Shown here: piece after piece, positions 3,291 through 29,139 of the stretch
How positions within the stretch are numbered: position 1 is the stretch's first letter
Layout of the letters: each line of letters starts with the position of its first letter
Origin: Gammaproteobacteria bacterium
GTDB lineage: Bacteria; Pseudomonadota; Gammaproteobacteria; UBA6429; Thiohalophilaceae
Direction: 5' to 3'
Length of the DNA: 38,771 bases
NCBI GenBank assembly: GCA_029881995.1
Contig: JAOULO010000010.1
Coordinates: forward strand, 1-38,771
Notes under the pieces: generated by a model
Told to the model about the DNA's origin: nothing
What the model saw: the letters and a program-made list of their open reading frames with translations, nothing else
The model's database searches: none
Made by a program: the position numbers and the translations under genes

Positions 3291-3303
3291 TTCACACCTC
3301 CTG

Positions 3304-5712: not shown

Positions 5713-5737
5713 TGTCATCACCTGCATCCATCGTTAT

Positions 5738-6886: not shown

Positions 6887-7076
6887 ATCCTTCTAATGCA
6901 CCTGTCCCATATACCGGTAAAGTTTGCCACGAAGCCTCGAAATCGACGCCAGGGCAGCAGGAAAACATAAGTTTTGTTCATTACCACGCTTTGTGTGGGA
7001 ATGGATAAATACCCAGTCACATCTTCCATCAAATGGTATGCTTCATCAAGCATTTGCAGGGAGCGCCCATCAAACC

Positions 7077-7751: not shown

Positions 7752-7868
7752 AATCAACAGATCTGACGGGGGCAATGCCAATCGCCACATAGTGTAAACC
7801 CTAAAAACTGGGGTCAGTTCACTTGATTGAGAAACAAATAATTGATATCTAACCCAAGTTTATTAAGC

Positions 7869-8312: not shown

Positions 8313-8356
8313 AGGTATTTCTCCAATATGATATAAATAGTTTAACAAAGGTGAAC

Positions 8357-8380
8357 CGGGCCAGTCTTGCGACTGGCCCG
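8357..8380 (-). terminator. Perfect 10-bp hairpin between copB and the downstream small gene
   Basis: Arms CGGGCCAGTC and GACTGGCCCG pair without mismatch. On the minus strand the loop is GCAA, a stable GNRA tetraloop. No clean T-run follows on the minus strand, so it is a partial terminator or an mRNA-stabilising element protecting the 3' end of copB rather than a full terminator. Confidence 0.6.
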
Positions 8381-8397
8381 ATGATTTGTCGACTTAT

Positions 8398-9105: not shown

Positions 9106-9116
9106 GTTACACCTCC

Positions 9117-10943
9117 TCAACTGACCACTACTTTACGGAACATACCTGCCATGTGATAAATCAGGTGGCAGTGGTAAGCCCATTCACCTTTGGCATCGGC
9201 CGTGACCAGGTAGCTGATCTTTGCACCGGGCTGGACAATGACCGTGTGCTTACGCGGGATGTATTTACCATCACCGGTTTCCAGGTCACTCCACATGCCG
9301 TGCAGATGCATGGGGTGGTTCATCATGGTGTCGTTGATGAGATTGATACGGACTCGTTCACCGTATTTGAGTTTCAGGGGTTGCGAGTCGGCATACTTGA
9401 TGCCGTTGATCGACCACATGTATCGGCTCATGTTGCCGGTTAAGTGCAGGTCGATCTCACGTGAGGGTTCACGTCCATCGGGACTGCGATGCAGGTTACG
9501 CAGGTCGGCATAGGTCAGCACACGTCGACCGTTATCACGCAGGCCGACACCGGGATCATCCAGTCGATACTGTGCACCATCGGCTCGCATGTCCACATGG
9601 GGTCCATACTCAGTTTCTGCGTGCACGACTTTGCGTTTGCTGCCATAGCCAGCACGACCGGATCCCATTGTGGGTTTGCTTGCCATGTTGTGCATCGAGT
9701 GATCCATCCCTTGCATGTTATGTTTGGAATGATCTATGCCCGCCATGTTATGTCCGGCATGCTCACCGCTGCTCATACCACTCATAGCACCGTGGGCCAT
9801 GCCCATATCCATATGGGTGAGTACTGGTGCTGGATCCATAGGTGGCACATCTGCCGTTAAGGCGGGATCGGGTGTTAGGGTACCGCGGGCATAACCACTG
9901 CGATCCATCGCCTGGGCAAACACGGAGTAAGCACGATCGTGTTTGGGTTCGACGATGACATCATAGGTTTCTGCAACACCGATACGAAACTCATCTACAT
10001 CGACTGGCTTGATGTATTGACCATCGGCTGCAACCACGGTCATTTTTAAACCGGGGATGCGCACATCAAAGAAGGTCATGCCGGCCGCATTGATAAAGCG
10101 CAGGCGTACACGCTCACCACGTTTGAACAGACCCATCCAGCCATCGGCCGGGGTGACACCGTTCATGAGGAAGGTATAGGTATAACCCGTGACATCAGAG
10201 ATATCCCGATCGGACATGCGCATGTTATTCCACATGGAACGATCATCAAGATATTTACCCAGACCTTTTTCACCCATTTCACTGAACTGTTCGCCAACGG
10301 TACGTTCACGGAAGTTGTAGTAATGGGACAGCTTTTTCAGTTTGGCATAAACATCCGATGGGTCTTCATCGGTCCAGTCTGACAACATGACCACATAGTC
10401 ACGATCATATTTAAACGGCTCGGGTTCTTTCGGGTCGATAATGATTGCACCATAGGCTCCGGTTTGTTCCTGGTAACCTGAATGGCTGTGATACCAGTAT
10501 GTCCCACTTTGCACGGCTGGGAATTTATAGGTAAAGCTTTCACCCGGCTTGATGCCGTTAAAACTGATACCGGGTACGCCGTCCATTTTGTAGGGCAGGA
10601 TTAAACCGTGCCAGTGAATGGAGGTGTCTTCGGCCATCATGTTGGTGACCTTGAGTGTGATGTTGTCACCTTCACGAAAGCGTAATACCGGGGCTGGAAC
10701 TGAACCGTTAATGGCGGTGGCCATGCGGTTGCTACCGGTGAAGTTGACGGGGGTGGGGCTGTAAGTGAGATTAAAGCGATTACCGCGCAACACCTGTGGC
10801 CCCATGCGGGCCTGTTGCATCTCGGCAAAGCTGGCAGTTGGGTTAAGCCCCATGGCCAGCAATGCACCACCGCCTGCCAGACTTTGTACAAAACGACGTC
10901 GAGATAATGAAACATTATCCTGAGGTAAAATAAACTTAGACAT
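9117..10943 (-). CDS. copA: Copper resistance multicopper oxidase CopA/PcoA
   Basis: A periplasmic Cu(I) oxidase of 608 residues starting at MSKFIL (GAGGA site seven bases upstream). A Tat signal with RRRFVQ at 15-20 exports the folded enzyme. Copper ligands are visible: HWHG at 110-113, HSH at 152-154, HPMHLHG in the C-terminal domain, and HCHLIYHMAGM at 591-601, giving T1 copper ligands Cys592, His597 and axial Met601. Between the cupredoxin domains is a Met/His-rich linker (MDMGMAHGAMSGMSSGEHAG and later HNMQGMDHSMHNM) that likely binds extra copper. The length matches CopA/PcoA. It is followed by copB. Long antisense frames in the linker reflect repeated ATG/CAT codons and are not genes. 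Confidence 0.96.
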   Translation of the reverse strand: MSKFILPQDNVSLSRRRFVQSLAGGGALLAMGLNPTASFAEMQQARMGPQVLRGNRFNLTYSPTPVNFTGSNRMATAINGSVPAPVLRFREGDNITLKVTNMMAEDTSIHWHGLILPYKMDGVPGISFNGIKPGESFTYKFPAVQSGTYWYHSHSGYQEQTGAYGAIIIDPKEPEPFKYDRDYVVMLSDWTDEDPSDVYAKLKKLSHYYNFRERTVGEQFSEMGEKGLGKYLDDRSMWNNMRMSDRDISDVTGYTYTFLMNGVTPADGWMGLFKRGERVRLRFINAAGMTFFDVRIPGLKMTVVAADGQYIKPVDVDEFRIGVAETYDVIVEPKHDRAYSVFAQAMDRSGYARGTLTPDPALTADVPPMDPAPVLTHMDMGMAHGAMSGMSSGEHAGHNMAGIDHSKHNMQGMDHSMHNMASKPTMGSGRAGYGSKRKVVHAETEYGPHVDMRADGAQYRLDDPGVGLRDNGRRVLTYADLRNLHRSPDGREPSREIDLHLTGNMSRYMWSINGIKYADSQPLKLKYGERVRINLINDTMMNHPMHLHGMWSDLETGDGKYIPRKHTVIVQPGAKISYLVTADAKGEWAYHCHLIYHMAGMFRKVVVS

Positions 10944-11000
10944 TTTTGTGTCCTCATATCCTGCATCCAATAAGGGATGCGTAAACCATAATTGTAGATT

Positions 11001-11023
11001 ACGAGTTACACACGTGAACTCGT
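11001..11023 (-). other. Seven-bp hairpin between the small copper gene and copA
   Basis: Arms ACGAGTT and AACTCGT flank a nine-base spacer, 58 bases before the copA start on the transcribed strand. There is no T-run. It could be a regulator dyad or a leader hairpin; the sequence alone cannot tell. Confidence 0.4.
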
Positions 11024-11045
11024 GATGAGATTGGTGGTTTGGATA

Positions 11046-11384
11046 TCAGGCTTGTGGGGGACGGTATAGCGCAGATGGAGTGATGGAATTGGGGTGATCA
11101 TCGCCACCCGGATATTTAATCGCACTTGTAGTGAGACTGGTTTTGAATACGCTCAGGGGAACAGCATTCATGAGTTGTGTGGCACAGTGGGCCATGCCAC
11201 AAAGGGCGTTGTTTTCACATTGCCCCGAATCATGATCGCTCGAATGATTAGATTGGGCCATTTGTTCCATGCAATGGTTCGAATCATGGTCTGACATGTC
11301 CGCCATGGACGACGCCCATACAGGTGACAGACCCATCAGGCCTATCAGCAGTACAGCGAGCAGTTTTTGCAGTCCATGTGGCAT
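11046..11384 (-). CDS. Small secreted Cys/His/Met-rich protein, DUF2946-like
   Basis: The ATG at 11384 (MPHGLQKLLAVLLIGLMG) is preferred over a GTG at 11393. The 112-residue product has a signal peptide ending near VWA, then a stretch with DMSDHDSNHCMEQM, HSSDHDSGQCE, LCGMAHCATQ, and a C-terminal ALYRPPQ. Small proteins with spaced CxMxHC motifs and a C-terminal YRPP are frequent in front of copAB operons (DUF2946 or CopL-like). They are thought to bind copper in the periplasm. Its place directly upstream of copA, on the same strand with a 102-base gap, fits this; the family name is a motif-level guess. Confidence 0.7.
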   Translation of the reverse strand: MPHGLQKLLAVLLIGLMGLSPVWASSMADMSDHDSNHCMEQMAQSNHSSDHDSGQCENNALCGMAHCATQLMNAVPLSVFKTSLTTSAIKYPGGDDHPNSITPSALYRPPQA

Positions 11385-17992: not shown

Positions 17993-18832
17993 ATGATTTT
18001 TACTAAATCAAGGAATGTGTACATCATTTTTGCCGGTCTGATGACCGTGATTCTGCTATTTCCTACCTCCAGTAGTCGAGTCAGTGCCGAGAAGCAGGAA
18101 TATGTTCTGGGAGTTTTTCCACACCTGCCCCCACGTGAACTGGAAAAAGTCTTTTCGCCCATGGCGGCTGATATCGCTAAGGCCATCGGCAAACCCATCA
18201 TTTTCCGCACCAGTTCGACCTATAAAAAATTCATGCAACAACTGGATAAGCAGGTATTTGATATTGCCTTTGTCCAGCCATTTGATTATGTACGTGCTGC
18301 TGATAAATATGGTTATTTACCACTGGCAACGCGGCAGGAAAAACTCTCAGCCATTATTGTTACCAAAAAGGGGAGTTCTCTGCTCAGTATCGATAATTTA
18401 AAAAATAAAACAATTTCTCTTCCACCCAAAGTAGCTGCAGTCAGCCATCTGATCAAAGATCAACTGAAAAGTCACGGTCTTATCCCGGGTAAAAACATCA
18501 AGCTGTCACACCACCGTTCACATGTTTCCTGTATGCAACAGGTGTTGATAGGTAGTGCGGATGCCTGTGGTACAGCGGCTCCAGCATTACGTTTTTTTCA
18601 ACACAAAATGAAAGTGGAAATGAAGACCATTGGAAAATCAAAATCCATCCCACATACCCTGTTTGCGATTCACCCGCGTATTCCGAATAAAGAAAAACAA
18701 ATCATATTGAATCGTATTTTAGGTTGGGGAAATACGTCAGAAGGTAAAAAGATGCTGGCACGGGGCAGGCTGAAACCGCTCAGGGAGATCACGGATGATA
18801 AATATAATATCGTCCGACAAATGTCTAAATAG
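17993..18832 (+). CDS. PhnD-type periplasmic phosphate/phosphonate-like binding protein
   Basis: The 279-residue protein has a signal peptide or anchor (residues 9-32) and a type II periplasmic-binding fold of the PhnD family: YVLGVFPHLPPRELEKVFSPMAADIAKAIG, FDIAFVQPFDYVRA, and SCMQQVLIGSADACGTAAPALRFF. Two Cys at 180 and 192 flank the ligand cleft region. No permease or ATPase genes accompany it. Instead a hybrid histidine kinase starts five bases after its stop. By analogy with AioX in the AioXSR arsenite-sensing system, a PhnD relative that feeds a sensor kinase, it is probably a ligand-sensing partner rather than an uptake component. The ligand is unknown. Confidence 0.88.
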   Translation: MIFTKSRNVYIIFAGLMTVILLFPTSSSRVSAEKQEYVLGVFPHLPPRELEKVFSPMAADIAKAIGKPIIFRTSSTYKKFMQQLDKQVFDIAFVQPFDYVRAADKYGYLPLATRQEKLSAIIVTKKGSSLLSIDNLKNKTISLPPKVAAVSHLIKDQLKSHGLIPGKNIKLSHHRSHVSCMQQVLIGSADACGTAAPALRFFQHKMKVEMKTIGKSKSIPHTLFAIHPRIPNKEKQIILNRILGWGNTSEGKKMLARGRLKPLREITDDKYNIVRQMSK

Positions 18833-18837
18833 GTTTT

Positions 18838-21129
18838 ATGCTTAGTCGTTTTATCCACAATCTGCGTTATTCGCTTAAATACCGAATTGCACTTGTCATC
18901 TTTATACTTGAAGCCTGTATGATGGCTTCTGTACTTGGTGTCACCCTGAACTATTCCCTCAAGAAATCACAACAACAACGTGTCGCTACAGAATCAGTAA
19001 CCATGGAACTGCTAAGCAACCTTGGTAGAGCTGCCCTTTTCACATCTGAATACGATGAAATCCAGACCTATATTGAACAGGTTGTGGATGATCCTCACAT
19101 TGAAACAATAATATTAACCAATCGGCGAGGTAGTGTAGCGGTATCAAATAAGCTGGAACTTATTGGAAGGGAAATACCAGGCCATACGAAAGAGCATGGT
19201 ATAGACCATGATGAAAACCAGGAACACTGGGAGGTTAAAGAAATCAATAATTCATCGGGGACTCTTGGCACACTGGCTATTCAATTTTCAAACAAAAGTC
19301 TTTTTGAAGCAAACAGGGAAGTGATGAGTCTGGGTATCACGATTGCCCTTAGTGGCATGATCCTTATTGCTATTATCGGTATTACGATAGGCCATATATT
19401 AACGCGAAAGCTAGAAGTCCTGAAGGCTGTAGCAAATAATTTTTCTAAAGGTTATCTTGGAACAAGAACTGGTTTCTCTGGCAAAGATGAGGTTTCAATC
19501 GTAGGACATACATTTGATGAAATGGCTAAAAAAGTTGCCGACCAGATGAACGAGTTATTTAAGTCCAGAGAAAAACTTGAACAGCGGGTTAAAGAACGGA
19601 CCGAAGAATTGGCTAATGCACGAGATGAGGCTATACAAGCAACAAAATCTAAAAGTGCCTTTCTGGCCAACATGAGTCATGAGATAAGAACACCGCTAAC
19701 AGCCATTATTGGATTCTCTGAATCTCTGCAGGAGAACAATCTAAAACAAAAGGAAAGAGAAGAGTATCTTGGCATTATTAACCATAGTGGGAAACACCTG
19801 TTACAAATTATAAATGACATTCTGGATCTCTCCAAAGTTGAAGCAGATAAGCTGACAATTGAAAAACTCAAGGTCAATTTGATTGAAGTTCTGTCTGATG
19901 TAGAATCACTGGTACGACTCGTTGCTGATGAAAAGGGTTTAACTATCAGCATTAATTATAAATCTGACATCCCTGAAACCATTACAACAGACCCCGTCAG
20001 GTTAAAACAGATACTGATCAATCTTTGTAATAATGCCGTTAAATTTACCCATAAGGGTTCAGTTGTTATAGAAGTTGAATATCTACCCATGTTTGATGAA
20101 ATTTCATGTACTGTCTCGGACACAGGTATTGGTATGACAAAGGAACAAATCAACAAGCTGTTTCAGGCATTTGGTCAGGCGGATTCATCAACCACTCGCA
20201 AATATGGTGGTACAGGGCTTGGTTTACATTTATCTAAGCAACTTGCTCAAAAACTGGGGGGTGATATTACCGTCAGCAGTATTGAGGGGGAAGGTAGCTG
20301 TTTTACCCTGAACCTGCCGACCGGTAAGATATCTCAGGATAACCTGATAAATGGCGATACATACGTTGCCAGCCATCGAAAGCAACCCCCTACTCAAAAC
20401 TATAATTTCAACAATAAAAGAATATTACTTGCTGAAGATAATGAGCACAACCAACGGTACATTTCAACACTATTGAAGACTACAGATGTAAAAATAGACA
20501 TAGCATCTGATGGCAGTGAAGCAGTAAAAATGGCAACTGAAGCAGATTTCGATCTAATCCTTATGGATATGCAAATGCCAAAAATGAATGGTATTGAAGC
20601 AACCACAATGTTACGCAACAAAAAGTTTAATAAGCCTATTATCGCTCTAACTGCCAATTATTCCAGTTCAGACATAGAAAGCTATTTATCAGCTGGCTGT
20701 GATGCTCACATTGCAAAACCAATTGATCGAAGTCTTTTTTTTAACACAATAAGTCTATATCTACCAAACTGTAATCTCCCTGATAAGGATATCAATAAAG
20801 ATAATATCGCTGCCATAACAACTAGAGATGAGTTTAATAACGAGATTGCCACAGCCATAAATATGTTCATCCAGCGCTTACCAGGTACTTTTACTGCCAT
20901 CTGCGAACAATATGAGGCACGCAATATCAAAAAGCTTGAGGAACTTATTCATGATCTCAAAGGGACTTCTGGTAATTTTGGTTATAACAGGCTTTTTAAC
21001 ATTTCTCAGCGGATGGAAACTGTTATAAAAGACAATAAACTTGATGAATTCCAAGAACTAATTCAACAGGCAGAGATAGAAGTTCAGTCAATTATTTCAA
21101 ACCCTGGAAAATCCAGCATGATATTCTAA
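18838..21129 (+). CDS. Hybrid sensor histidine kinase (HAMP-HisKA-HATPase-REC-HPt)
   Basis: The 763-residue inner-membrane kinase has a membrane helix at about 17-38, a periplasmic part to about 162, a second helix at 165-187, a HAMP linker, and a coiled coil to 270. The H-box FLANMSHEIRTPLTAI holds His281. The ATPase has NLCNNAVKF at 395, DTGIG at 428 and GGTGLGL at 457. A receiver domain follows with LLAEDNEHNQR, phospho-acceptor Asp577 and Lys627, then an HPt domain with LIHDLKGTSGNFGY, His705. The order is that of BarA/TorS-type phosphorelays. No response regulator with a DNA-binding domain is in the window, so the relay must end elsewhere. It is co-transcribed with the binding protein (five-base gap), and its 3' end overlaps the convergent GIY-YIG gene by four bases. 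Confidence 0.95.
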   Translation: MLSRFIHNLRYSLKYRIALVIFILEACMMASVLGVTLNYSLKKSQQQRVATESVTMELLSNLGRAALFTSEYDEIQTYIEQVVDDPHIETIILTNRRGSVAVSNKLELIGREIPGHTKEHGIDHDENQEHWEVKEINNSSGTLGTLAIQFSNKSLFEANREVMSLGITIALSGMILIAIIGITIGHILTRKLEVLKAVANNFSKGYLGTRTGFSGKDEVSIVGHTFDEMAKKVADQMNELFKSREKLEQRVKERTEELANARDEAIQATKSKSAFLANMSHEIRTPLTAIIGFSESLQENNLKQKEREEYLGIINHSGKHLLQIINDILDLSKVEADKLTIEKLKVNLIEVLSDVESLVRLVADEKGLTISINYKSDIPETITTDPVRLKQILINLCNNAVKFTHKGSVVIEVEYLPMFDEISCTVSDTGIGMTKEQINKLFQAFGQADSSTTRKYGGTGLGLHLSKQLAQKLGGDITVSSIEGEGSCFTLNLPTGKISQDNLINGDTYVASHRKQPPTQNYNFNNKRILLAEDNEHNQRYISTLLKTTDVKIDIASDGSEAVKMATEADFDLILMDMQMPKMNGIEATTMLRNKKFNKPIIALTANYSSSDIESYLSAGCDAHIAKPIDRSLFFNTISLYLPNCNLPDKDINKDNIAAITTRDEFNNEIATAINMFIQRLPGTFTAICEQYEARNIKKLEELIHDLKGTSGNFGYNRLFNISQRMETVIKDNKLDEFQELIQQAEIEVQSIISNPGKSSMIF

Positions 21130-21395
21130 TACTGCTGAATTGTAATTATTCCTTTCATCAACTTCAATTTACTATTTCTATCCAGTTTTCTAATTTTATA
21201 TTCAAGCTTACTGGCATCTGATCGATTTTCACAGGCCATTTCATAGACAAGCTTAACTGGTCGTCTGGCACGGGTATACTTTGCACCCAGGTTATTATTG
21301 TTATGTTCGTCTAATCTTCTCACTGTATCTGTAGTAATGCCTGTATAATAGCTTCCATCATTACATTCAAGCATATAGACAGTCCACTGGCTCAC
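21126..21395 (-). CDS. GIY-YIG nuclease-domain protein (UPF0213 type)
   Basis: The 89-residue protein consists of one GIY-YIG domain: WTVYMLECNDGSYYTGITTD, with the paired VYML and YYTGI strands, then RRLDEHNN and LEYKIRKLDRNSK. Members of this small family (YhbQ-like) are proposed structure-specific nucleases in DNA repair. It overlaps the Cys-cluster gene by four bases (21392-21395), typical for translational coupling, and ends convergently inside the end of the kinase gene. Confidence 0.9.
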   Translation of the reverse strand: MSQWTVYMLECNDGSYYTGITTDTVRRLDEHNNNNLGAKYTRARRPVKLVYEMACENRSDASKLEYKIRKLDRNSKLKLMKGIITIQQY

Positions 21396-21853
21396 GATTC
21401 ATCACCTGATTGTAATTCATGAATAATATGATCTTCTAATTGCTCTGGATGGATACTCTCTTCTGAGACAGCGTAGTCACAGACTGAAACACCGGCCTGG
21501 CTTGTAGATACCCTTTGCCCAGTCAATAAAGGATGCCAGTCAGGTAATGTCCTTTTTTCATAGAGAGTTCGATAGGCACAGGTCTCAGGTAACAGGCAGA
21601 ATAACTCTGGTTTATCTACTGTAAGTACCAGACACGCCTCCACCTCTTTTTGCCTATTTGGGTAATCCATACAACGGCAGTTTTCCAGGTCCAGTAATCG
21701 ACAGGCAACGTTAGTTGTATAAATTCTGTCGCTTTCATCATCCTGCAGTTTCATTAAGCAGCAATAGCCACAACCATCACAGAGAGACTCCCACTCTTCT
21801 TTATTCATTTCACTTAGTAGCTTATGCTGCCAGAAAGGCGCTTCAATACTCAT
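21392..21853 (-). CDS. YcgN-family cysteine-cluster protein (UPF0260)
   Basis: The 153-residue soluble protein matches UPF0260/YcgN: FWQHKLLSEMNKEEWESLCDGCGYCCLMKLQD, CRLLDLENCRCMDYPNRQ, LPETCAYRTLYEKRTLPDWHPLLTG and a C-terminal HPEQLEDHII. The Cys set fits an iron-sulfur or zinc cluster. The function of YcgN is not settled. It overlaps the preceding HIT-like gene by 11 bases and the following GIY-YIG gene by four bases. Confidence 0.93.
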   Translation of the reverse strand: MSIEAPFWQHKLLSEMNKEEWESLCDGCGYCCLMKLQDDESDRIYTTNVACRLLDLENCRCMDYPNRQKEVEACLVLTVDKPELFCLLPETCAYRTLYEKRTLPDWHPLLTGQRVSTSQAGVSVCDYAVSEESIHPEQLEDHIIHELQSGDES

Positions 21854-22043
21854 TTGATTGGATTTTCTGCTTAGTAATAACGGTCTTTTCCTTTTTATCT
21901 AAATGCACAATATGATGTGCATGCAACAGAGGAACCAGGATAGACCATGTGAACTTTCTCTCATTCATCAGTAGTAAGTGACATAGATCAAGTTCGCCGC
22001 GATAAATACCGTCATTTTTCAGTTGAGGATGTAGTTTTGTCAT
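21843..22043 (-). CDS. Shortened HIT-domain protein
   Basis: The 66-residue product begins LHPQLKNDGIYRGELDLCHLLLMNERKFTWSILVP (5-39), which matches the N-terminal half of HIT-family hydrolases (pattern LxxDxxxxGDLPLCxxLLMNDxRxPWxILVP). Intact members have about 140 residues and end in a catalytic HxHxH. Here the chain stops soon after ILVP. The following LLHAHHIVHLDKKEK can be read either as the normal LDExDQ helix start, meaning the catalytic half is lost, or as a short-cut to a His motif. Either way the enzyme is unlikely to be fully active. It is placed directly before and overlapping the YcgN gene, so it may be a remnant kept for translational coupling. It has no strong ribosome site. 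Confidence 0.6.
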   Translation of the reverse strand: MTKLHPQLKNDGIYRGELDLCHLLLMNERKFTWSILVPLLHAHHIVHLDKKEKTVITKQKIQSNEY

Positions 22044-22233
22044 GTGTTTTACTATATGCCTTTAAGAAAGCTATTTACCATTGATACAGATCATCGCACA
22101 CCACCATATTTATTGTTACAAAGCTGTGTATAGTGGATTATCCGATAATTCCCATGGTAGCCATCCCATCCGTATTAATCAATTGCAAGGCTAATCCTCA
22201 TCAGATTTAGACATAGTGTAAGGGTTCTGCGCC

Positions 22234-22779
22234 ATGTTGAGTTGTCCGTCCAGAAAGTCGATCTGTATTGGTCTGATACTTTTTTTCTTTGGTGCCGCTG
22301 CCTATGGCGGACTGAATACCTTTTTTCATTATACCAACCGAATGGATTTCTGTATCTCCTGTCATTCCATGAAAATCAATTATGAGGAGTATAAAAAAAC
22401 TCTACATTACAAAAATGCTATCGGTGTACAGGCGACTTGTTCTGACTGCCATGTACCGAAGGCATTTTTTCCAAAACTCTATGCCAAAATTATGGCGGCC
22501 AAGGATGTCTATCACGAAATTATGGGGACAGTTGATACAAAAGAGAAGTATGAAGCCAGGCGCTGGCACATGGCCAATCTGGTATGGGAGAAAATGCGCG
22601 CCAATGATTCACGTGAATGTCGCACCTGTCACAACTATGAAAACATGGATCTAAGTGAGCAGGACCGACGGGCGCGTAAAAAACATACTCGCGCACCTTT
22701 ACAGGGTAAAACCTGTATTGACTGTCATTCGGGTATAGCCCATACCGAACCACTGGAACCGGAGGGGGCCATTGAGTAA
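22234..22779 (+). CDS. NapC/NirT-family tetraheme cytochrome c
   Basis: The 181-residue protein is anchored by one N-terminal helix (10-30) and carries four heme-binding motifs: CISCH (40-44), CSDCH (69-73), CRTCH (129-133) and CIDCH (161-165). This is the NapC/NirT/NrfH layout, which passes electrons between the quinone pool and periplasmic enzymes. Here it opens a plus-strand set with a secreted ankyrin protein and the sulfide dehydrogenase FccA/FccB, so it may take electrons from the dehydrogenase toward quinone or the reverse. No nitrate, nitrite or TMAO reductase gene is near. Its stop overlaps the next ATG by one base, indicating coupling. Confidence 0.95.
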   Translation: MLSCPSRKSICIGLILFFFGAAAYGGLNTFFHYTNRMDFCISCHSMKINYEEYKKTLHYKNAIGVQATCSDCHVPKAFFPKLYAKIMAAKDVYHEIMGTVDTKEKYEARRWHMANLVWEKMRANDSRECRTCHNYENMDLSEQDRRARKKHTRAPLQGKTCIDCHSGIAHTEPLEPEGAIE

Positions 22780-23726
22780 TGTCCAGGCTAATACGAAATT
22801 TTCTGCTGCTGCTGGGCATACTCAGTTTTACATCTGTTCTGGCGACAGATATCAATCGAAGCCTGCTCGACTCTGCCATTGTCGGTGACCAGGACACAAT
22901 TCAATTATTATTAAATAAAGGTGCCAATCCTGACGCCAAAAGTCGTTTCGGTAAATCCGCCCTGATGTTTGCCGCAGAAAATGGTAATCACGAGGTAGTT
23001 AAATTATTGGTCGGACAAGGTGCCAATATCAATGCGCGCAGTCTGGTTGGCTGTACTGCGCTGACCTATGCGGCTGAAAATGGTCATGATGAACTGGTCA
23101 AGTTTCTACTGAAAAAAGGTGCCAAAACCCATCCCAAGACCCGTGCCGGCTGGGATGCCCTGGCCATGGCAAGCCGCCAGGGCCACAACACGGTCATGTC
23201 AACATTGATCGCGCACAAGGCAAACGTGAACACCTCAGACAAGGATGGTATGACCGCCCTTATGGCCACTGCGGTTCGAAGTAATACAAAGGCCGTTAGC
23301 TTATTACTTGATGCCGATGCCGACCTGCACGTACGGGACAAAAACGGCATGAGTGCCATGATGATGGCGGCATGTAAAGGTAACACCGAAATAGTAAAAA
23401 TGCTTTTAAAGCGTGGAGCTAATGTCAATACTGTTGACAATGATGCAGAAACATCATTGTTTTGTGCCGCAGCAGGGGGACATACTGATGTTATGAATTT
23501 ACTGTTAAAACAGGGTGCAAATATCAATCAGCAGGATTTGACCGGTGAAACAGCCTTGTTTACCGCCGCTATCAACCGCCAGACCAACGCTGTACGCTTT
23601 TTGTTAGAACACGGCGCGAATCGAAAAATAAAAAACAAAGCAAAACTGACCGTTATGGAAGTTGCCATCAAAAAGCGACTACATGATATCGCAGACCTGC
23701 TTGAGCACCATAAAGGGAAGAAATGA
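22779..23726 (+). CDS. Secreted ankyrin-repeat protein
   Basis: The 315-residue protein has a signal peptide ending LAT near residue 23 and then about eight to nine ankyrin repeats of 33 residues up to residue 310. Repeat motifs are clear: GKSALMFAAENGNHEVVKLLVGQGANINARS, ALTYAAENGHDELVKFLLKKGA, GMTALMATAVRSNTKAVSLLLDADADL, GETALFTAAINRQTNAVRFLLEHGAN. No catalytic domain is present. It is a periplasmic protein-binding scaffold. Coupling by one base to the tetraheme cytochrome gene and 66 bases before fccA suggests it helps assembly or docking of these cytochromes. A comparable case is periplasmic AnkB beside catalase in Pseudomonas. Confidence 0.95.
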   Translation: MSRLIRNFLLLLGILSFTSVLATDINRSLLDSAIVGDQDTIQLLLNKGANPDAKSRFGKSALMFAAENGNHEVVKLLVGQGANINARSLVGCTALTYAAENGHDELVKFLLKKGAKTHPKTRAGWDALAMASRQGHNTVMSTLIAHKANVNTSDKDGMTALMATAVRSNTKAVSLLLDADADLHVRDKNGMSAMMMAACKGNTEIVKMLLKRGANVNTVDNDAETSLFCAAAGGHTDVMNLLLKQGANINQQDLTGETALFTAAINRQTNAVRFLLEHGANRKIKNKAKLTVMEVAIKKRLHDIADLLEHHKGKK

Positions 23727-23792
23727 ATTTATAAATTGATGCATTTGCATGAAACAGTAATCACATCCCGTCTGCGGCGGGAAGGAGGAGAA

Positions 23793-24389
23793 ATGAAATT
23801 ACAGTATCCATACAAAATACTGCTATTGCTATGTTGTTCTCTGTTTTACAACATAAGCTATGCAGCAACCCCCAGTGCTGCCATGCTGGCCAACACCTGT
23901 GCCGGCTGCCACGGTACCAATGGTTCCAGTGTTGGTCCGGCCAGCCCGACTATTGCTGGTATTTCCAAGGACTATTTTATCGAGACCATGCAGGCCTACA
24001 AGTCCGGGGAACGTCCCTCCACAATCATGACACGTATAGCAAAAGGATATACCGATGAGGAAATAAAACTCATGGCAGGATTCTTTTCAAAACAACCCTT
24101 TGTTCGCCAGAGTCAAGGCTTTGATAAAAACAAGGCCACAACCGGTAAAAAGCTGCATAAGAAATATTGTGAAAAATGTCATGAAAAGGGTGGTCGCTCG
24201 GCAGAAGATGATGCTGGCATTCTAGCCGGTCAATGGGAACCCTATCTTCGTTTCACTATGGAAGACTTTAACAATGGCAGTCGTTCCATGGAAAAGAAAA
24301 TGAAGAAAAAAATGCAGGCCCTCAACAAGAGCCACGGTAAAAAGGGCGTAGATGCCCTGATGCATTACTACGCAAGTCAGAACAAGTGA
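23793..24389 (+). CDS. fccA: Diheme cytochrome c subunit of sulfide dehydrogenase (FccA-like)
   Basis: The ATG at 23793 is chosen because GGAGGAG lies three bases before it; the earlier ATG at 23736 gives no signal peptide. The 198-residue product has a signal peptide (ending SYA, residue 24) and two class I cytochrome c domains with CAGCH at 36-40 and CEKCH at 126-130. Such diheme cytochromes take electrons from the FAD subunit FccB during sulfide oxidation to sulfur or polysulfide in the periplasm. fccB follows 13 bases later, which fixes the assignment. The Lys-rich C-terminus (MEKKMKKKMQ) is unusual and may help partner docking. Confidence 0.9.
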   Translation: MKLQYPYKILLLLCCSLFYNISYAATPSAAMLANTCAGCHGTNGSSVGPASPTIAGISKDYFIETMQAYKSGERPSTIMTRIAKGYTDEEIKLMAGFFSKQPFVRQSQGFDKNKATTGKKLHKKYCEKCHEKGGRSAEDDAGILAGQWEPYLRFTMEDFNNGSRSMEKKMKKKMQALNKSHGKKGVDALMHYYASQNK

Positions 24390-24402
24390 GGAGGAAACAG
24401 CC

Positions 24403-25704
24403 ATGACAAACATAAACCGTAGAGATTTTCTCACCTTGACCGGTGGGGCGGTGGCTGTCTCAGCGCTGGGTTTCCCCATGCTGAGTTTTGCTTCCGGTAA
24501 ACGTGTTGTCATCGTCGGTGGTGGTATGGGTGGGGCCACAGCCGCCAAGTATATCAAGATGGCCGATAACAGTATTGATGTCACCCTGATTGAAGTCAAC
24601 AAGACCTATCATACCTGCTTCTTAAGTAATGAGATTCTAGGAGGTAATCGCGATATTAAATCCATTCGCTTTGGTTACAGTGGACTGAAGAAGCGAGGTA
24701 TCAATGTCATCCATGATCTGGTAACAGGTATCGACCCTGTAACCAAAAAGGTCAGCATCAAAAGTGGTAAGACCTTTACCTATGATGCCTGTATTGTCTC
24801 TCCTGGTATCAGTTTTAACTGGGATGCCATCAAGGGCTATGATGCAAAAGTTGCAGAGTCTATCCCCCATGCATGGAAGGCCGGGCCACAGACCACTCTA
24901 TTGAAAAACCAGATCCGAGCTATGAAGGATGGAGGCCTTGTCGTGATAGTGGCACCACCCAATCCTTTTCGCTGCCCACCCGGTCCCTATGAACGGGCCA
25001 GCCAGATTGCCTGGTACCTGAAAAACAATAAGCCTAAGTCCAAGATTATCATCCTGGATAACAAGAAAAAGTTTTCCAAGATGAAGCTGTTTACTGCTGG
25101 CTGGCAACGGCATTATGGCTATAACACTGATAAAAGTATGATCGAGTGGATCAGTGGTGATGCTGGAGGTAAGGTCACCGCAGTTGATGCAAAAAAACGT
25201 ACCGCAATAGCTGAAGTCGATTTTGATGCGGACGTTCTCAATGTCATCCCCCCACAGAAAGCCGGCAAGATTGCCCTGATGTCTGACCTGGCAAATGACA
25301 AAGGCTGGTGCCCGATTCACCCCGGCACTTTCGAGTCAACCCGACACAAGGGAATTTATGTACTGGGTGATGCCGCTGTGGCAGCGCCACTACCCAAGTC
25401 GGGCTATGCCGCCAACTCCGAGGCCAAGGTTTGTGCTGCGGTAATTGTTGCCAGGCTGAATGGCAAAGCCGATCCAGTACCTTCCTATGTCAACACCTGT
25501 TACAGCATCATTACACCCGATGATGGTATGTCAGTCGCCATGGTGTATCGACTTGCCGAAGAGGGTAAAGACAAAGGTAAGATCATCAAGATCAAGGGCT
25601 CTGGTGGATTGACCCCCATGGAGGCCAGTGCGACCATGCGAAAACGGGAAGTCACTTATGCCCATTCGTGGTTTAAGAATATCACCCACGATACGTTTGG
25701 CTAA
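24403..25704 (+). CDS. fccB: Flavocytochrome c sulfide dehydrogenase flavoprotein FccB
   Basis: Oxidises sulfide in the periplasm and passes electrons to the FccA hemes. The 433-residue protein starts with a Tat signal (NRRDFLTLTGG, cleavage near SFA30). The FAD Rossmann motif VVIVGGGMGGATAAKYIK follows at 35-52. Cys72 in TYHTCFLSNEILGG matches the Cys that holds FAD covalently in Allochromatium vinosum FccB (mature Cys42), while Cys191 (FRCPPGPYERA) and Cys366 (VNTCYS) match the redox-active pair. LGDAAVAAPLPKSGYAAN is the second FAD-binding segment, and the C-terminal FCSD-flavin domain is complete. GAGGA lies nine bases upstream. A strong terminator ends the set. Confidence 0.96.
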   Translation: MTNINRRDFLTLTGGAVAVSALGFPMLSFASGKRVVIVGGGMGGATAAKYIKMADNSIDVTLIEVNKTYHTCFLSNEILGGNRDIKSIRFGYSGLKKRGINVIHDLVTGIDPVTKKVSIKSGKTFTYDACIVSPGISFNWDAIKGYDAKVAESIPHAWKAGPQTTLLKNQIRAMKDGGLVVIVAPPNPFRCPPGPYERASQIAWYLKNNKPKSKIIILDNKKKFSKMKLFTAGWQRHYGYNTDKSMIEWISGDAGGKVTAVDAKKRTAIAEVDFDADVLNVIPPQKAGKIALMSDLANDKGWCPIHPGTFESTRHKGIYVLGDAAVAAPLPKSGYAANSEAKVCAAVIVARLNGKADPVPSYVNTCYSIITPDDGMSVAMVYRLAEEGKDKGKIIKIKGSGGLTPMEASATMRKREVTYAHSWFKNITHDTFG

Positions 25705-25722
25705 GTCGTTCTGGTCTGTACT

Positions 25723-25751
25723 GCACCTGTCGCAATGACAGGTGCTTTTTT
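25723..25751 (+). terminator. Rho-independent terminator after fccB
   Basis: Arms GCACCTGTC and GACAGGTGC with a GCAAT loop, followed by six T residues. It ends the cytochrome/sulfide dehydrogenase transcript and reaches the stop region of the convergent mtnC gene. Confidence 0.93.
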
Positions 25752-26427
25752 ACTCAAGAGTAATACCGGCAAAGTTATCACATTGCTGGTGTTCTGCCGT
25801 ATCATCTGACACCTGTCCACGTACCAACCATTTAGTTTGCATACCTGCTGATTTTGCAGCATCCAGCTCTTCCTTGATATCAGACAGGAACATTATCTCC
25901 TCGGCAGGCAATGCTATCTCTTTAACTATAGTGTTATAGGCATCGGCCTCACGCTTATTGCCGATACGGGTATCAAAGTAGCCACTGAACAGGGGTGTCA
26001 GGTCTCCGGCATCACTGTAACCGAACAACAATTTTTGTGCCTTTACTGAACCGGATGAGAACACATAAAGTTTGACACCCTGTTCATGCCATTTTCTGAG
26101 ATACTCCACAGCATCATCGTACATATGCCCGGTAAAGTCCCCTTGCCGGTAACCGGCCTCCCAGATCATGCCCTGCAGGGCCTTTAAAGGGGTAATCTTT
26201 TTATCTTCTTCTATCCATTTAATTAACTGGGCAATGATGTCGTCAATCGTCAGCTCTTTACCGACCTGCAGACGTATATCATTCAGTTGAGACATCACGT
26301 CAGGCTCATCGGCATGATGACGAACAAACTCTGGCAATCTTTCCTTTGCATAGGGGAATAACACATCATGCACAAAGGAGATGGAAGATGTTGTTCCCTC
26401 AATATCGGTGACAATAGCTCGAATCAT
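25750..26427 (-). CDS. mtnC: Acireductone synthase (enolase-phosphatase) MtnC
   Basis: Converts 2,3-diketo-5-methylthiopentyl-1-phosphate to acireductone in methionine salvage. The 225-residue HAD-superfamily protein has TDIEGTTSSISFVHDVLFPYA (7-27) with nucleophile Asp8 and Glu10, the VFSSGSVKAQKLLF loop at 119-132 and the SDIKEELDAAKSAGM motif near the end. It overlaps mtnD by four bases and is the last gene of the mtnB-mtnD-mtnC run. Confidence 0.95.
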   Translation of the reverse strand: MIRAIVTDIEGTTSSISFVHDVLFPYAKERLPEFVRHHADEPDVMSQLNDIRLQVGKELTIDDIIAQLIKWIEEDKKITPLKALQGMIWEAGYRQGDFTGHMYDDAVEYLRKWHEQGVKLYVFSSGSVKAQKLLFGYSDAGDLTPLFSGYFDTRIGNKREADAYNTIVKEIALPAEEIMFLSDIKEELDAAKSAGMQTKWLVRGQVSDDTAEHQQCDNFAGITLE

Positions 26428-26984
26428 GCGATTTCAGTCACCATGTCATCAAAACTTGGAAAAGTAGTAGCAATATCGCTGCCAGTAAAGTTGCCTTCCC
26501 AGCCATTTTCAGTGGTAAAAAATCGAATACACTTGAACGAAGGATTTTCTCCCATATCAAACCAGTGTGTTGTATTAGCGGGTACACTGATAAGATCACC
26601 CTTCTCACACATTACCATGTAAACCTCATCATCAAGATGAAGGTAGAACAGGCCTCGTCCATCTACAAAAAAACGAATCTCAAAATCTACATGAGTGTGC
26701 TCAGCCAGAAACTTCGATCGGAAAGCGGCCTTATCTGGATGATCCGGATTAAGACTGACGACATCGACTGAACTGAAATTATATTTTTTACTCAGCGTAT
26801 CGATTGATTCCTGGTAGGCGGTCATAACCGCATCCTGATCGGCATCATCGGCCAATACCTGATTAGCCTGCCAGGCCTCAAACTGGACACCTTTTTTGGC
26901 CAGTTGTTCGGTAATGGCTGTATGCTCAGTAACAGATTGAATAACTACCGGGTTATTGTCCTTACAGATAAATAATGCACTCAT
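26424..26984 (-). CDS. mtnD: Acireductone dioxygenase MtnD
   Basis: A cupin metalloenzyme that oxidises acireductone to the methionine precursor 2-keto-4-methylthiobutyrate plus formate (Fe form). The 186-residue protein has the metal ligands His96, His98, Glu102 and His140 in EHTHVDFEIRFFVDG and PANTTHWFDMG. The fold and length match bacterial ARD. It lies two bases after mtnB and overlaps mtnC, so the three are translated as a unit. Confidence 0.95.
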   Translation of the reverse strand: MSALFICKDNNPVVIQSVTEHTAITEQLAKKGVQFEAWQANQVLADDADQDAVMTAYQESIDTLSKKYNFSSVDVVSLNPDHPDKAAFRSKFLAEHTHVDFEIRFFVDGRGLFYLHLDDEVYMVMCEKGDLISVPANTTHWFDMGENPSFKCIRFFTTENGWEGNFTGSDIATTFPSFDDMVTEIA

Positions 26985-26986
26985 GG

Positions 26987-27604
26987 TCAGTTCACTCCTC
27001 GCATGCGTAGTTCACATTCAAATAAAAATTCAAACGCCTCGACATGGCGTAAGGCATCTTCCACTGTTTCCCCCCAGGTATAAAAACCGTGGCCATTAAT
27101 AAGGTAGCCGTAGATTGGGCCTTCAGATTGCATATAGTCATCGACCCGCTCTGCCAATCGTTCGATATTCTGGTCATTTTGAAAAATCGGCACAGTCACG
27201 GAACAGTCATGGGTATCTATGCCGGGAAAGGCCTTAAGCAATTCATAATCCTGTAACTGTAGGAATTCACCTGACAATCGAGATAATAATGTGGCATTTA
27301 CCGAGTGGGGATGCAAGATGGCTTTTGCTTCAGGTATACGGTTATAGATCTGAACATGCAGGCCTGTTTCAGCAGATGATCGGCGTTCATCCAGTGATTG
27401 ACCATTGGCATCCACACGCATTATGTCCTCATCAAGCATTCTTCCCTTGTGTCTGCCTGAAACCGTAATGGCAATATCCCCATTCGACAAGCGAGCCGAA
27501 AAATTACCACTGGTGGCTGGCACCATACCCAGGGCATATAAACTCTGTCCTGCAGTTATAAGCTCTGACGTGCGCTGATTAAATTCCTGCTGTTGATCTG
27601 CCAT
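26987..27604 (-). CDS. mtnB: Methylthioribulose-1-phosphate dehydratase MtnB
   Basis: A class II aldolase-fold zinc enzyme that dehydrates methylthioribulose-1-phosphate. The ATG at 27604 (MADQQQEF) follows GGGGTGG by five bases and is preferred to an earlier ATG at 27640. The 205-residue protein has TSGNFSARL, the zinc-site HPHSVNATLLSRL and GHGFYTWGETVEDALRHVEAFEFL. mtnA, mtnK or mtnP for the upstream steps are not in the window. I saw no SAM riboswitch in the 240 bases before the start. Confidence 0.93.
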   Translation of the reverse strand: MADQQQEFNQRTSELITAGQSLYALGMVPATSGNFSARLSNGDIAITVSGRHKGRMLDEDIMRVDANGQSLDERRSSAETGLHVQIYNRIPEAKAILHPHSVNATLLSRLSGEFLQLQDYELLKAFPGIDTHDCSVTVPIFQNDQNIERLAERVDDYMQSEGPIYGYLINGHGFYTWGETVEDALRHVEAFEFLFECELRMRGVN

Positions 27605-27798
27605 GGCTACCACCCCTGGAAAATTCACGTATCCTATCATAGTAGGCTGAAACTACAATTATATTAACGACTTAAATTGTCCCAGTAATTCTACCAGGAA
27701 TATTTCCAGTTACAGCCATCAAGACATTTAACCTGGCATTCTGACTTACGACTGATCATTATCAATGTAATAAATTAATAAATCAGTTAGCCTGCAAA

Positions 27799-27826
27799 TT
27801 GGTTTGTAGATGCTGCTTCGTATAAA
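27799..27826 (+). promoter_or_regulatory. Possible promoter for the small membrane-protein frame
   Basis: TTGGTT (27799-27804) and TATAAA (27821-27826) are separated by 16 bases and lie 20 bases before the ATG at 27847. Confidence 0.4.
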
Positions 27827-27846
27827 TAATTTAAGAGACATTAGGT

Positions 27847-27969
27847 ATGCACTTGTTTAGACACATACCACATCACCGGAGAGACGATGTCGAGTCTCAT
27901 GAGCTGATTTATTTTCTGATGGAATTAGCCATACTGATATATATTTTTATGATTTGGCCCGTCAAATAA
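27847..27969 (+). CDS. Possible 40-residue single-pass membrane protein
   Basis: A short frame from ATG 27847 to TAA 27969. The first 18 residues are basic and His-rich (MHLFRHIPHHRRDD), followed by a hydrophobic helix (ELIYFLMELAILIYIFMIWP), which fits the positive-inside rule for a small inner-membrane protein. A promoter-like pair lies just upstream and an AGAGA stretch precedes the start by about nine bases. It sits alone between the divergent mtnB and the convergent phosphodiesterase gene. I recognise no family. It could also be chance, as the surrounding stretch (27605-27978) shows no other gene. Confidence 0.42.
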   Translation: MHLFRHIPHHRRDDVESHELIYFLMELAILIYIFMIWPVK

Positions 27970-27978
27970 TTCTTCAGT

Positions 27979-29139
27979 TTAACAACTGGCATAGATCAGG
28001 GGGACATACATTTCCTGTGAACTGACTCCCCCATGCACGCCTATGTGAGCGAAGGCCCGTTCCCCGACAAGTTGATCCTTTATGATAAAATTGTCTTTCA
28101 TCAACAAAGTGTAATGACCAATACGCTCATGGAGTTTTGGGTGTGATTCACCTATACCAAAATACCCTTCATCAAGTACAGTCTGGCTTGGTTTTAGTAT
28201 TATACAATCCTCCAGCTCAGATTTAATATAATCAATAAACTGGTTTTCTTTACCAGGATGAACATAACAGTAGGCTGCTCTGGGTTCACCACTCAAGGGC
28301 ATAACTAGAGACTCCTGAATTATTGGGTGATCATGGAGATGTATTATCCGATCCGGGGCTGTATCAATAAAACCATGATCTGCAGTCACGATTATGCTGG
28401 TATCGGTGCCAGCCAGTTTTTTTAACAGGGAATCAAACTCGGCATCCAGTTCTGCAAAATGACTATGGACCTTTGAACTTGTACAACCGGTCTCATGAGA
28501 ATAACGATCAAAATCAGGCCAATAAGCATAGATATATTTATGCTCATCGGTACTGTTAACAATGCTTTGAATATTATTAAAACACTCAGATAAATTGTTA
28601 TACCCATGTAATAAGGCAGCACCTGAATGCGCTACATTATATTCAGAATGAATAATCCATTCGGGTGCAACGACATAAGATGTCCAGGGAAGTAAATCAA
28701 ATATAGGGGTGTGTCCATACAGGCTATTTGCATCAAGATGCTCCGGGTTAAAATTTGACATTCCCACACGAGGTTTGAAGGGTAAAACTGCCGTGATACA
28801 ACCCAGTTCCTTTAGATAGGTAAACCAACCCGTCAGGCCATGTTGTTGCGGGGCCAGCCCTGTCATAAAAGTCGTAATTGCTGTAGCCGTAGTGGAAGGG
28901 AATACCGAAGTCATTTTTCCTGCTATATGGTCATGCAAACAACTTCCCTGCCCATGTTTAAGCAAGTACTCATAACCCAGGCCGTCAATTACTAATAAAA
29001 TAATATTTCGGTTGTTGGCCAATCTATCAACCGACAGAGACTCAAGCACAGGGTAATTATTTACGACCTTACCCATCGCTGATGACAGGCTACTCATCAA
29101 ATTAACAAGACTATTTCCCTGATAATCAGGACATGGCAT
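27979..29139 (-). CDS. Alkaline phosphatase superfamily type I phosphodiesterase/nucleotide pyrophosphatase
   Basis: A two-metal hydrolase of phosphodiester bonds. The ATG at 29139 (MPCPDYQGNSLVNLMSSL) has a CCAGG stretch before it; a TTG at 29163 would add eight residues. In the 386-residue protein the metal and nucleophile sites are visible: IILLVIDGLGYEYL (Asp), SVFPSTTATAITTFMTGLAPQQHG (nucleophilic Thr), AYWPDFDRYSHETG, IIVTADHGFID and HIGVHGGVSSQEM. There is no signal peptide, so a cytoplasmic enzyme is likely. Substrate is not evident. The gene stands alone after two terminators. Confidence 0.92.
   Translation of the reverse strand: MPCPDYQGNSLVNLMSSLSSAMGKVVNNYPVLESLSVDRLANNRNIILLVIDGLGYEYLLKHGQGSCLHDHIAGKMTSVFPSTTATAITTFMTGLAPQQHGLTGWFTYLKELGCITAVLPFKPRVGMSNFNPEHLDANSLYGHTPIFDLLPWTSYVVAPEWIIHSEYNVAHSGAALLHGYNNLSECFNNIQSIVNSTDEHKYIYAYWPDFDRYSHETGCTSSKVHSHFAELDAEFDSLLKKLAGTDTSIIVTADHGFIDTAPDRIIHLHDHPIIQESLVMPLSGEPRAAYCYVHPGKENQFIDYIKSELEDCIILKPSQTVLDEGYFGIGESHPKLHERIGHYTLLMKDNFIIKDQLVGERAFAHIGVHGGVSSQEMYVPLIYASC

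What the first reader, a model, noticed from the sequence alone, without database searches (positions are those of the whole stretch)
22234..25704. Sulfide dehydrogenase cassette with a tetraheme NapC-type cytochrome and a secreted ankyrin protein
Four plus-strand genes end at one strong terminator: membrane tetraheme cytochrome, periplasmic ankyrin-repeat protein (one-base overlap), FccA and FccB. FccAB normally delivers electrons to soluble cytochromes. A quinone-linked NapC-type partner would offer another electron exit or entry, and a purely ankyrin periplasmic protein could act as assembly or docking factor. This combination is not a textbook arrangement.
Basis: partly seen in the sequence, partly recalled or inferred. 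Interest (0 to 1): 0.65.

Follow-up and report, generated by a model that had tools for sequence, protein, structure and literature searches.

The report
Sulfide dehydrogenase operon with quinone-linked cytochrome
The genes for a classic sulfide-oxidising enzyme sit in one conserved operon with a membrane cytochrome that probably links the enzyme to the cell's quinone pool and with a secreted ankyrin protein; the model bacterium in which the enzyme was crystallised has the same arrangement.

Summary
In detail: window 22234-25704 encodes a tetraheme NapC-type cytochrome, a signal-peptide ankyrin protein (TAATG overlap), diheme FccA and FccB, with the only plus-strand terminator-like hairpin nearby at 25723-25745. 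The arrangement is not chance. Of the 80 best ankyrin relatives in named genomes, 80 have NapC directly upstream, 64 have fccA downstream, 59 have all four genes. In 40 FccA loci from 39 genera, 27 have NapC and ankyrin, 2 NapC only, 11 neither. Allochromatium vinosum DSM 180, source of the crystallised enzyme, has the same order (Alvin_1095-1092), and a published transcriptome ranks all four among the ten most induced genes on pyrite. A 2019 paper saw no conserved fccAB neighbourhood in a diverse set. This NapC is distinct from the nap-type paralogue and keeps residues aligned with the NrfH quinol site. Most likely FccAB exchanges electrons with quinone through it; direction and the ankyrin's role are inferred. 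NapC-ankyrin also occurs without fccAB, often near another diheme cytochrome. Against: the ankyrin gene is lost or absent in some genomes, and a distance comparison ties it to FccB, not NapC. Tubeworm-symbiont ankyrins published as host-interaction proteins may be this family.

The parts
22044..22233 (+). gap upstream of NapC that presumably holds the operon promoter (to its left an unassigned 66-aa minus-strand ORF, 21843-22043, which reads away from it)
   Evidence: position; no Pfam match for that ORF; promoter pattern scan not above chance
22234..22779 (+). NapC/NirT-family tetraheme cytochrome c, one N-terminal hydrophobic anchor by eye (181 aa)
   Evidence: PF03264 E 1.6e-66; four CxxCH; M46, K85, D91 align with NrfH M49, K82, D89; branch separate from nap-type NapC
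22779..23726 (+). secreted ankyrin-repeat protein (signal peptide by eye), 315 aa, no other domain
   Evidence: Pfam ankyrin families only; signal-peptide-like N terminus in 84 of 86 sequences by a crude rule
23727..23792 (+). ankyrin-fccA gap with a short hairpin and the AAGGAGG ribosome site
   Evidence: sequence; fold no better than shuffles, z -0.05
23793..24389 (+). [quoted passage not shown]
   Evidence: 1FCD_C E 1.1e-57; two CxxCH
24403..25704 (+). fccB, flavoprotein subunit (433 aa), twin-arginine motif NRRDFL by eye
   Evidence: PF21706 E 8.2e-47, PF09242 E 1.1e-26; 1FCD_A E 1.3e-148
25723..25751 (+). intrinsic-terminator-like hairpin and T run
   Evidence: 10-pair stem, 3-base loop, T run

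Best explanation
The four genes are one operon for a quinone-coupled flavocytochrome c sulfide dehydrogenase. FccB oxidises sulfide (or a sulfur chain) on its flavin and passes electrons to the two hemes of FccA (established for the homologous enzyme). FccA then exchanges electrons with the periplasmic tetraheme domain of the NapC-type protein, which exchanges them with membrane quinone (inferred). The net flow most likely goes from sulfide to quinone, as proposed for cM552 in ammonia oxidisers, so that electrons enter above the bc1 complex instead of being spent on cytochrome c (inferred). The exported ankyrin protein most likely docks or helps assemble the NapC domain with its soluble cytochrome partner, FccA here and a c4-like diheme cytochrome elsewhere (inferred, weakest step). 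My rough estimates: operon 0.97, NapC-FccA electron exchange 0.65, net flow to quinone 0.5, ankyrin as docking or assembly factor 0.5.
For: Gene order: NapC upstream of the ankyrin gene in 80 of 80 named loci, all four genes in 59 of 80, contig end within 413 bases of FccA in 5 more; 27 of 40 FccA loci from 39 genera carry NapC and ankyrin. Co-regulation: A. vinosum has the same order, and Alvin_1093, 1092, 1095 and 1094 rise by log2 7.45, 6.18, 5.39 and 4.83 on pyrite versus sulfide (PMC11267869, passages). NapC is not the nitrate-reductase one: another NapC lies at the end of what reads by eye as a nap operon in the same genome (L190); in a tree the 43 NapC proteins of the FccA/ankyrin/Mtr contexts separate from 8 nap-type paralogues with support 1.0; K85 is kept in 43 of 43 and 8 of 8; position 91 is D in 41 of 43 and E in 8 of 8 (five of the eight are in recognisable nap operons by eye, the context of L192, L193 and L199 was not resolved). 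K85 and D91 align with NrfH K82 and D89, whose part in quinol binding I recall. Precedents: cM552 of the NapC/NrfH superfamily as quinone reductase (PMC3772326, passages); the quinol dehydrogenase CymA with the diheme cytochrome PdsA (PMC8805035, passages; that CymA is of the NapC family is recalled). Window FccA matches the PdsA model at E 4.3e-36, 124.6 bits, below its cut-off of 330. Other loci: NapC next to an FccA-like diheme gene and near an MtrB gene in L104 and L105, and in a row with FccA, an FccB-like protein, a DmsE-family decaheme cytochrome and MtrB in L102.
Against: No biochemistry. Eleven of 40 panel loci have FccA without NapC or ankyrin, one of them (L246) cut at the contig end. 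G017 keeps NapC, FccA and FccB while the ankyrin gene has decayed to remnants, and 2 of 29 NapC-bearing panel loci lack it, so the ankyrin protein is dispensable somewhere. Partial correlations of distance matrices in 44 loci couple ankyrin with FccB (0.64), not with NapC (0.03). NapC-ankyrin occurs without fccAB next door. A. vinosum fccAB mutants oxidise sulfide at wild-type rate (PMC3368242, passage). The ankyrin-FccA gap reaches 483 bases in relatives, room for a second promoter. The induction on pyrite is not equal for the four genes and does not tell the direction. In Ca. Thiosymbion oneisti fccB fell without oxygen (PMC8269255, passage); its NapC-ankyrin locus L179 has no fccAB in the stretch held.
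Confidence: 0.5

Rival explanations
1. Same wiring, opposite net flow: quinol reduces NapC, NapC reduces FccA, and FccAB reduces stored sulfur or polysulfide to sulfide, for example in the dark.
For: Most characterised NapC-family proteins oxidise quinol (recalled; NrfH, a quinol dehydrogenase, is the only solved relative found). A. vinosum fccAB mutants oxidise sulfide normally, so sulfide oxidation may not be the main task.
Against: FccAB oxidises sulfide with cytochrome c in vitro (PMC3368242, passage); the operon is induced during growth on pyrite, an electron donor.
Confidence: 0.2
2. NapC-ankyrin is a general quinol:periplasmic-cytochrome module that is only co-transcribed with fccAB; its real partner is the c4-like diheme cytochrome, and FccAB keeps using soluble cytochrome c.
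For: NapC-ankyrin without fccAB next door but near a c4-like or other diheme cytochrome gene in L077, L078, L085, L086, L088, L091, L094; of the 16 of 80 named loci without fccA downstream 9 have a c4-like gene in the flank, 3 end within 354 bases.
Against: 59 of 80 loci have all four genes in the same order; NapC-FccA-FccB is kept where no ankyrin gene lies between (L098-L101).
Confidence: 0.2
3. The ankyrin protein is a heme or folding chaperone for c-type cytochromes, comparable to ankyrin proteins linked to bacterial catalases (AnkB, Cj1386; recalled), and has no part in docking.
For: Tight linkage to cytochrome genes; in six genomes of the tubeworm-symbiont genus a second ankyrin gene overlaps a c4-like cytochrome gene by four bases.
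Against: NapC reads intact without the ankyrin gene in G017 and in L098-L101, L216, L238.
Confidence: 0.25
4. The ankyrin protein is a secreted effector for interaction with eukaryotic hosts.
For: Ankyrin proteins of tubeworm symbionts are so interpreted (PMC6918071, PMC7787665, PMC6194059; passages).
Against: Same gene in the same place in free-living purple sulfur bacteria, Thiohalomonas and others.
Confidence: 0.03

Closest known systems
Flavocytochrome c sulfide dehydrogenase FccAB of Allochromatium vinosum (PDB 1FCD)
   Same: FccA and FccB are close homologues; in A. vinosum the same NapC and ankyrin genes precede fccA
   Different: In the passages read FccAB is treated as a two-subunit enzyme that hands electrons to soluble cytochrome c; the two upstream genes are not discussed as its partners
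NapC/NirT/NrfH/CymA family of membrane multiheme quinol dehydrogenases
   Same: PF03264 domain, four hemes, anchor, residues aligned with the NrfH quinol site
   Different: Linked to a sulfide dehydrogenase; own branch; D instead of E at position 91
HAO-c554-cM552 (hydroxylamine:ubiquinone reductase module)
   Same: A periplasmic dehydrogenase with a NapC/NrfH-superfamily protein described as quinone reductase
   Different: Different enzyme and substrate; the passages read name no ankyrin protein
CymA-PdsA-MtrCAB extracellular electron transfer
   Same: Membrane quinol dehydrogenase paired with a periplasmic diheme cytochrome; PdsA model is the best NCBIfam match of window FccA, below cut-off
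   Different: Leads to an outer-membrane conduit; no sulfide flavoprotein in the passages read
Sulfide:quinone oxidoreductase (Sqr)
   Same: Would have the same overall reaction, sulfide to quinone
   Different: Single membrane-bound flavoprotein; FccB is only a distant relative
Catalase-linked bacterial ankyrin proteins (AnkB, Cj1386; recalled)
   Same: Ankyrin protein encoded beside a heme protein
   Different: Different heme protein; sequence relation beyond the repeat not tested

Membership tests
Flavocytochrome c sulfide dehydrogenase | FccB with FCSD central and flavin-binding domains | tested here: met
   PF21706 and PF09242 above cut-off; 1FCD_A E 1.3e-148
Flavocytochrome c sulfide dehydrogenase | Adjacent cytochrome subunit FccA | tested here: met
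   1FCD_C E 1.1e-57; two CxxCH
Flavocytochrome c sulfide dehydrogenase | Sulfide oxidation activity | not testable with these tools
   needs the protein
NapC/NirT family | Four c-type heme motifs and PF03264 domain | tested here: met
NapC/NirT family | Residues corresponding to the NrfH heme-1 and quinol site | tested here: met
   M46, K85, D91 align with NrfH M49, K82, D89; K85 in 43 of 43, D91 D in 41 of 43; role of the NrfH residues recalled
NapC of periplasmic nitrate reductase (TIGR02161, PRK10617) | Score above curated cut-off and nap operon context | tested here: not met
   215.5 bits against 310.6 and 194.1 against 349; context is fccAB; another NapC of the genome ends a nap operon (by eye)
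Quinone-coupled sulfide dehydrogenase (proposed) | Electron exchange FccA-NapC-quinone | not testable with these tools
   gene order, co-expression and residues only
Dot/Icm-type ankyrin effectors (NCBIfam hits) | Score above curated cut-off | tested here: not met
   best 121.9 bits against 600; matches are to the repeat
Catalase-linked ankyrin proteins | Catalase gene next door | tested here: not met
   neighbours are NapC and FccA

The most novel reading that the evidence does not exclude
The classic flavocytochrome c of purple sulfur bacteria and many thiotrophic symbionts is in vivo the catalytic head of a four-part, membrane-anchored sulfide:quinone (or quinol:sulfur) system, held together by a dedicated periplasmic ankyrin scaffold. 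The same scaffold family serves a second module with a c4-like diheme cytochrome, and ankyrin proteins of tubeworm symbionts published as host-interaction factors are these respiratory scaffolds.
Probability: 0.35. Interest if true: 0.78.

Novelty: new variant of a known kind. Interest (0 to 1): 0.62.

Why it matters
The in vivo role of flavocytochrome c in A. vinosum is described as unresolved, since its mutant oxidises sulfide normally (PMC3368242, PMC11267869; passages). A conserved, co-induced partner of a quinone-active family gives a concrete reason to look for its electrons in the quinone pool and makes the question testable by single-gene deletions in a laboratory strain. It also qualifies a statement in print that the surroundings of fccAB are not conserved (PMC6382920, passage), and offers a respiratory reading for symbiont ankyrin proteins that were taken for host-interaction factors.

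Tried and rejected
Chance neighbourhood: rejected by recurrence in many genera. NapC as the nitrate-reductase electron donor: rejected, another NapC of the genome ends what reads by eye as a nap operon, and the two kinds separate in the tree. Ankyrin protein as a partner of FccAB alone: weakened, since it also occurs without fccAB next door; but the distance-matrix test favours FccB, so I leave its direct partner open. RNA element in the ankyrin-fccA gap: fold no better than shuffles; no Rfam match above gathering score and no tRNA in the window. Ankyrin gene in the 498-base gap of G017: only broken remnants, best tblastn E 5e-4. Structure prediction was not used, because only single chains could be folded and the question is about a complex.

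Literature: searches listed no paper whose title or abstract start describes the four-gene cluster; I saw passages of eleven papers, no whole text, and no supplement. PMC11267869 lists the four A. vinosum genes among the induced ones; in the passages seen it does not join them, annotates Alvin_1095 as epoxyqueuosine reductase in its table and as a 4-heme cytochrome of unresolved function in its text, and leaves Alvin_1094 uncharacterised. Only open-licence PubMed Central was searched, so absence in print is not established.

C92, invariant in those 86 sequences, lies outside the patterns but is absent in 9 of the 27 class-sample sequences, each of which has a c4-like or other diheme cytochrome gene nearby; others with such a gene keep it. 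The 40 panel loci were picked by me from the listed rows, covering 39 of the 49 genera with a hit; FccB is missing or cut in L226, L229 and L232. Of the 26 ankyrin rows 21 had a typed NapC nearby; of the other five, three (L084, L087, L092) have one that was not in the typed rows, G402 is split over contigs and G256 has none next door.
Full report
What is there. Window 22234-25704 holds four plus-strand genes in tight order: a NapC/NirT-family tetraheme cytochrome (PF03264, E 1.6e-66), a protein made only of ankyrin repeats behind a signal peptide (by eye), FccA and FccB. NapC and ankyrin overlap by one base in TAATG; FccA starts at ATG 23793 behind AAGGAGG; FccB carries a twin-arginine motif (by eye). 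The only plus-strand terminator-like hairpin in 20000-28000 lies at 25723-25745, 18 bases after fccB. FccA and FccB are close relatives of the crystallised A. vinosum enzyme (1FCD, E 1.1e-57 and 1.3e-148). The genome also has dsrA above the curated cut-off.

Conservation in the family. FccB was found in 11 of 40 genomes at E 1e-60. Five loci have a diheme FccA: the window (G000); G018, with ankyrin-FccA-FccB from the very start of its contig; G027, with NapC-ankyrin at one contig end and FccA-FccB at another; G017, with NapC-FccA-FccB and ankyrin remnants in a 498-base gap; and G032, with FccAB alone. Four loci with a monoheme FccA (L024-L027) show no NapC in the 8-18 kb held. The remaining matches are cut or odd (L017/L028, L018, L019).

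Conservation in the class. FccA, NapC and ankyrin were searched separately in 369 genomes. Of the best 26 ankyrin rows, 21 have a typed NapC row nearby and three more have NapC next door. In named genomes the best 80 ankyrin relatives have NapC directly upstream on the same strand in 80 of 80, FccA downstream in 64 and all four genes in 59; in 5 more the contig ends within 413 bases of FccA. Of the 16 without fccA downstream, 3 end within 354 bases and 9 have a c4-like diheme cytochrome gene in the flank; such a gene is in the flank of 31 of 80. All four genes are present in Allochromatium palmeri, Marichromatium gracile, Thiocapsa imhoffii, Thiorhodococcus minor, two Halochromatium species, Thiocystis violacea, Thioploca, Thiomargarita, and in symbionts of tubeworms, lucinid clams and Solemya; the Thiosymbion nematode symbionts L152 and L179 have NapC-ankyrin without fccAB in the stretch held. 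To avoid choosing by ankyrin, FccA was searched in 210 genomes of the order of G386 (161 of 210 positive, 49 of 61 genera), and 40 loci from 39 of these genera were read: NapC and ankyrin 27, NapC alone 2, neither 11 (one of them cut), ankyrin without NapC 0.

The model organism. G508 is A. vinosum DSM 180: its largest contig has 3,526,903 bases, the published chromosome length, and its FccA contains the 1FCD_C segment exactly. The locus reads FccB-FccA-ankyrin-NapC on the minus strand (L210). Alvin_1092 and 1093 are FccB and FccA in print and 1095 is called a 4-heme cytochrome, so 1094 is the ankyrin gene by order. In cells grown on pyrite against sulfide these genes rise by log2 6.18, 7.45, 5.39 and 4.83 (1092, 1093, 1095, 1094) and hold ranks 3, 1, 6 and 9 of the induced list (PMC11267869, passages). 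A 2019 comparison of fccAB contexts in a diverse group that included A. [quoted passage not shown] Over that distance this may hold; within the Gammaproteobacteria sampled here it does not.

The cytochrome. The window genome has another NapC (51% identical) at the end of what reads by eye as a nap operon (L190). In a tree of 51 NapC sequences, 43 from FccA, ankyrin or Mtr contexts separate from 8 nap-type paralogues with support 1.0; five of the eight lie in recognisable nap operons (L190, L191, L194, L195, L198, by eye), the context of the other three was not resolved. M46, K81 and K85 are invariant in both groups; position 91 is D in 41 of 43 and E in 8 of 8. K85 and D91 align with NrfH K82 and D89, which I recall as quinol-site residues. 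So the protein has what a quinone-active member needs and is not the nitrate-reductase donor.

The ankyrin protein. In 86 sequences (50 effective) F57-K59, E67, C92, E100, T121-R122, W125 and R133 are kept at 0.79-1.00 (G58-K59 and T121-L128 were search patterns; C92 is absent in 9 of 27 class-sample sequences). A signal-peptide-like start is seen in 84 of 86 by a crude rule; the other two look like signal peptides by eye. Gene order ties it to NapC. In six genomes of one genus (g320) NapC-ankyrin-FccA-FccB is present in 6 of 6, and a second ankyrin gene overlaps a c4-like cytochrome gene by four bases in 6 of 6, with a NapC-domain gene of another kind 3-5 kb away. Against a NapC-specific role: partial correlations of distance matrices in 44 non-redundant loci (of 73 with all four genes) link ankyrin with FccB (0.64) and not with NapC (0.03), and NapC with FccA (0.41). 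A bridge between FccAB and NapC would fit both observations, but that is conjecture.

How it most likely works. Sulfide is oxidised on FccB, electrons pass to FccA, then to the NapC-type protein and to quinone. Precedents are cM552, a NapC/NrfH-superfamily protein described as quinone reductase (PMC3772326, passages), and CymA with the diheme cytochrome PdsA (PMC8805035, passages); the window FccA matches the PdsA model at E 4.3e-36, under its cut-off. In L104 and L105 NapC lies beside an FccA-like diheme gene, with an MtrB gene and an unscanned protein with ten CxxCH motifs nearby; in L102 NapC, FccA, an FccB-like flavoprotein, a DmsE-family decaheme cytochrome and an MtrB porin follow each other. 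Pairing of NapC with FccA-type cytochromes is thus a recurring design. The reverse flow, quinol to sulfur, is not excluded.

Literature link. Ankyrin proteins of tubeworm symbionts, in the Riftia symbiont with signal peptides and seen in the metaproteome, were proposed to act on the host (PMC6918071, PMC7787665, PMC6194059; passages). The six genomes of g320 have the two cytochrome-linked ankyrin genes just described. I did not match the published accession, nor show that the Riftia symbiont is among these genomes, so the identity is a proposal.

Verdict. Real, conserved and, in A. vinosum, co-induced; function inferred. A new variant of a known kind: the enzyme and the cytochrome family are known, their fixed combination with an ankyrin protein was not found in the papers searched.

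Noticed in passing
L102 (G091), about 6882-11343: NapC, FccA, an FccB-like flavoprotein (FCSD domains), a DmsE-family decaheme cytochrome and an MtrB porin (cut by the contig end) in a row: a possible sulfide dehydrogenase wired to an outer-membrane conduit.
   Followed up: partly
L283-L285, L287-L289 (six genomes of g320) and L089: A second ankyrin gene next to a c4-like diheme cytochrome gene without the FccAB-type NapC next door; in L283 a 668-aa protein with nine CxxCH motifs lies nearby.
   Followed up: partly
L076, L077, L078, L094: Proteins of 807-841 aa with seven CxxCH motifs and a lipoprotein-like start (by eye) within about 5 kb of NapC-ankyrin; only weak cytochrome c7 and MtrC-type matches for the two scanned (L076, L077).
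   Followed up: partly
L021 / L197, between NapC and FccA (G017): Decayed remnants of the ankyrin gene while NapC, FccA and FccB read through: a natural loss.
   Followed up: yes
L019 1498-2397 (G032:C64): A 299-aa ORF matches both an N-terminal stretch of FccA and the C-terminal half of FccB; a hybrid or an assembly artefact.
   Followed up: no
L024-L027: fccAB with a monoheme FccA and no NapC seen nearby, 4 of 4, unlike the diheme kind.
   Followed up: partly
window 17993-21129: Phosphonate-type periplasmic binding protein followed at once by a hybrid sensor kinase with receiver and Hpt domains; may form a sensor pair.
   Followed up: no
window 2967-10970: By eye a copper-handling cluster (P-type ATPase, multicopper oxidase and others); not scanned.
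   Followed up: no
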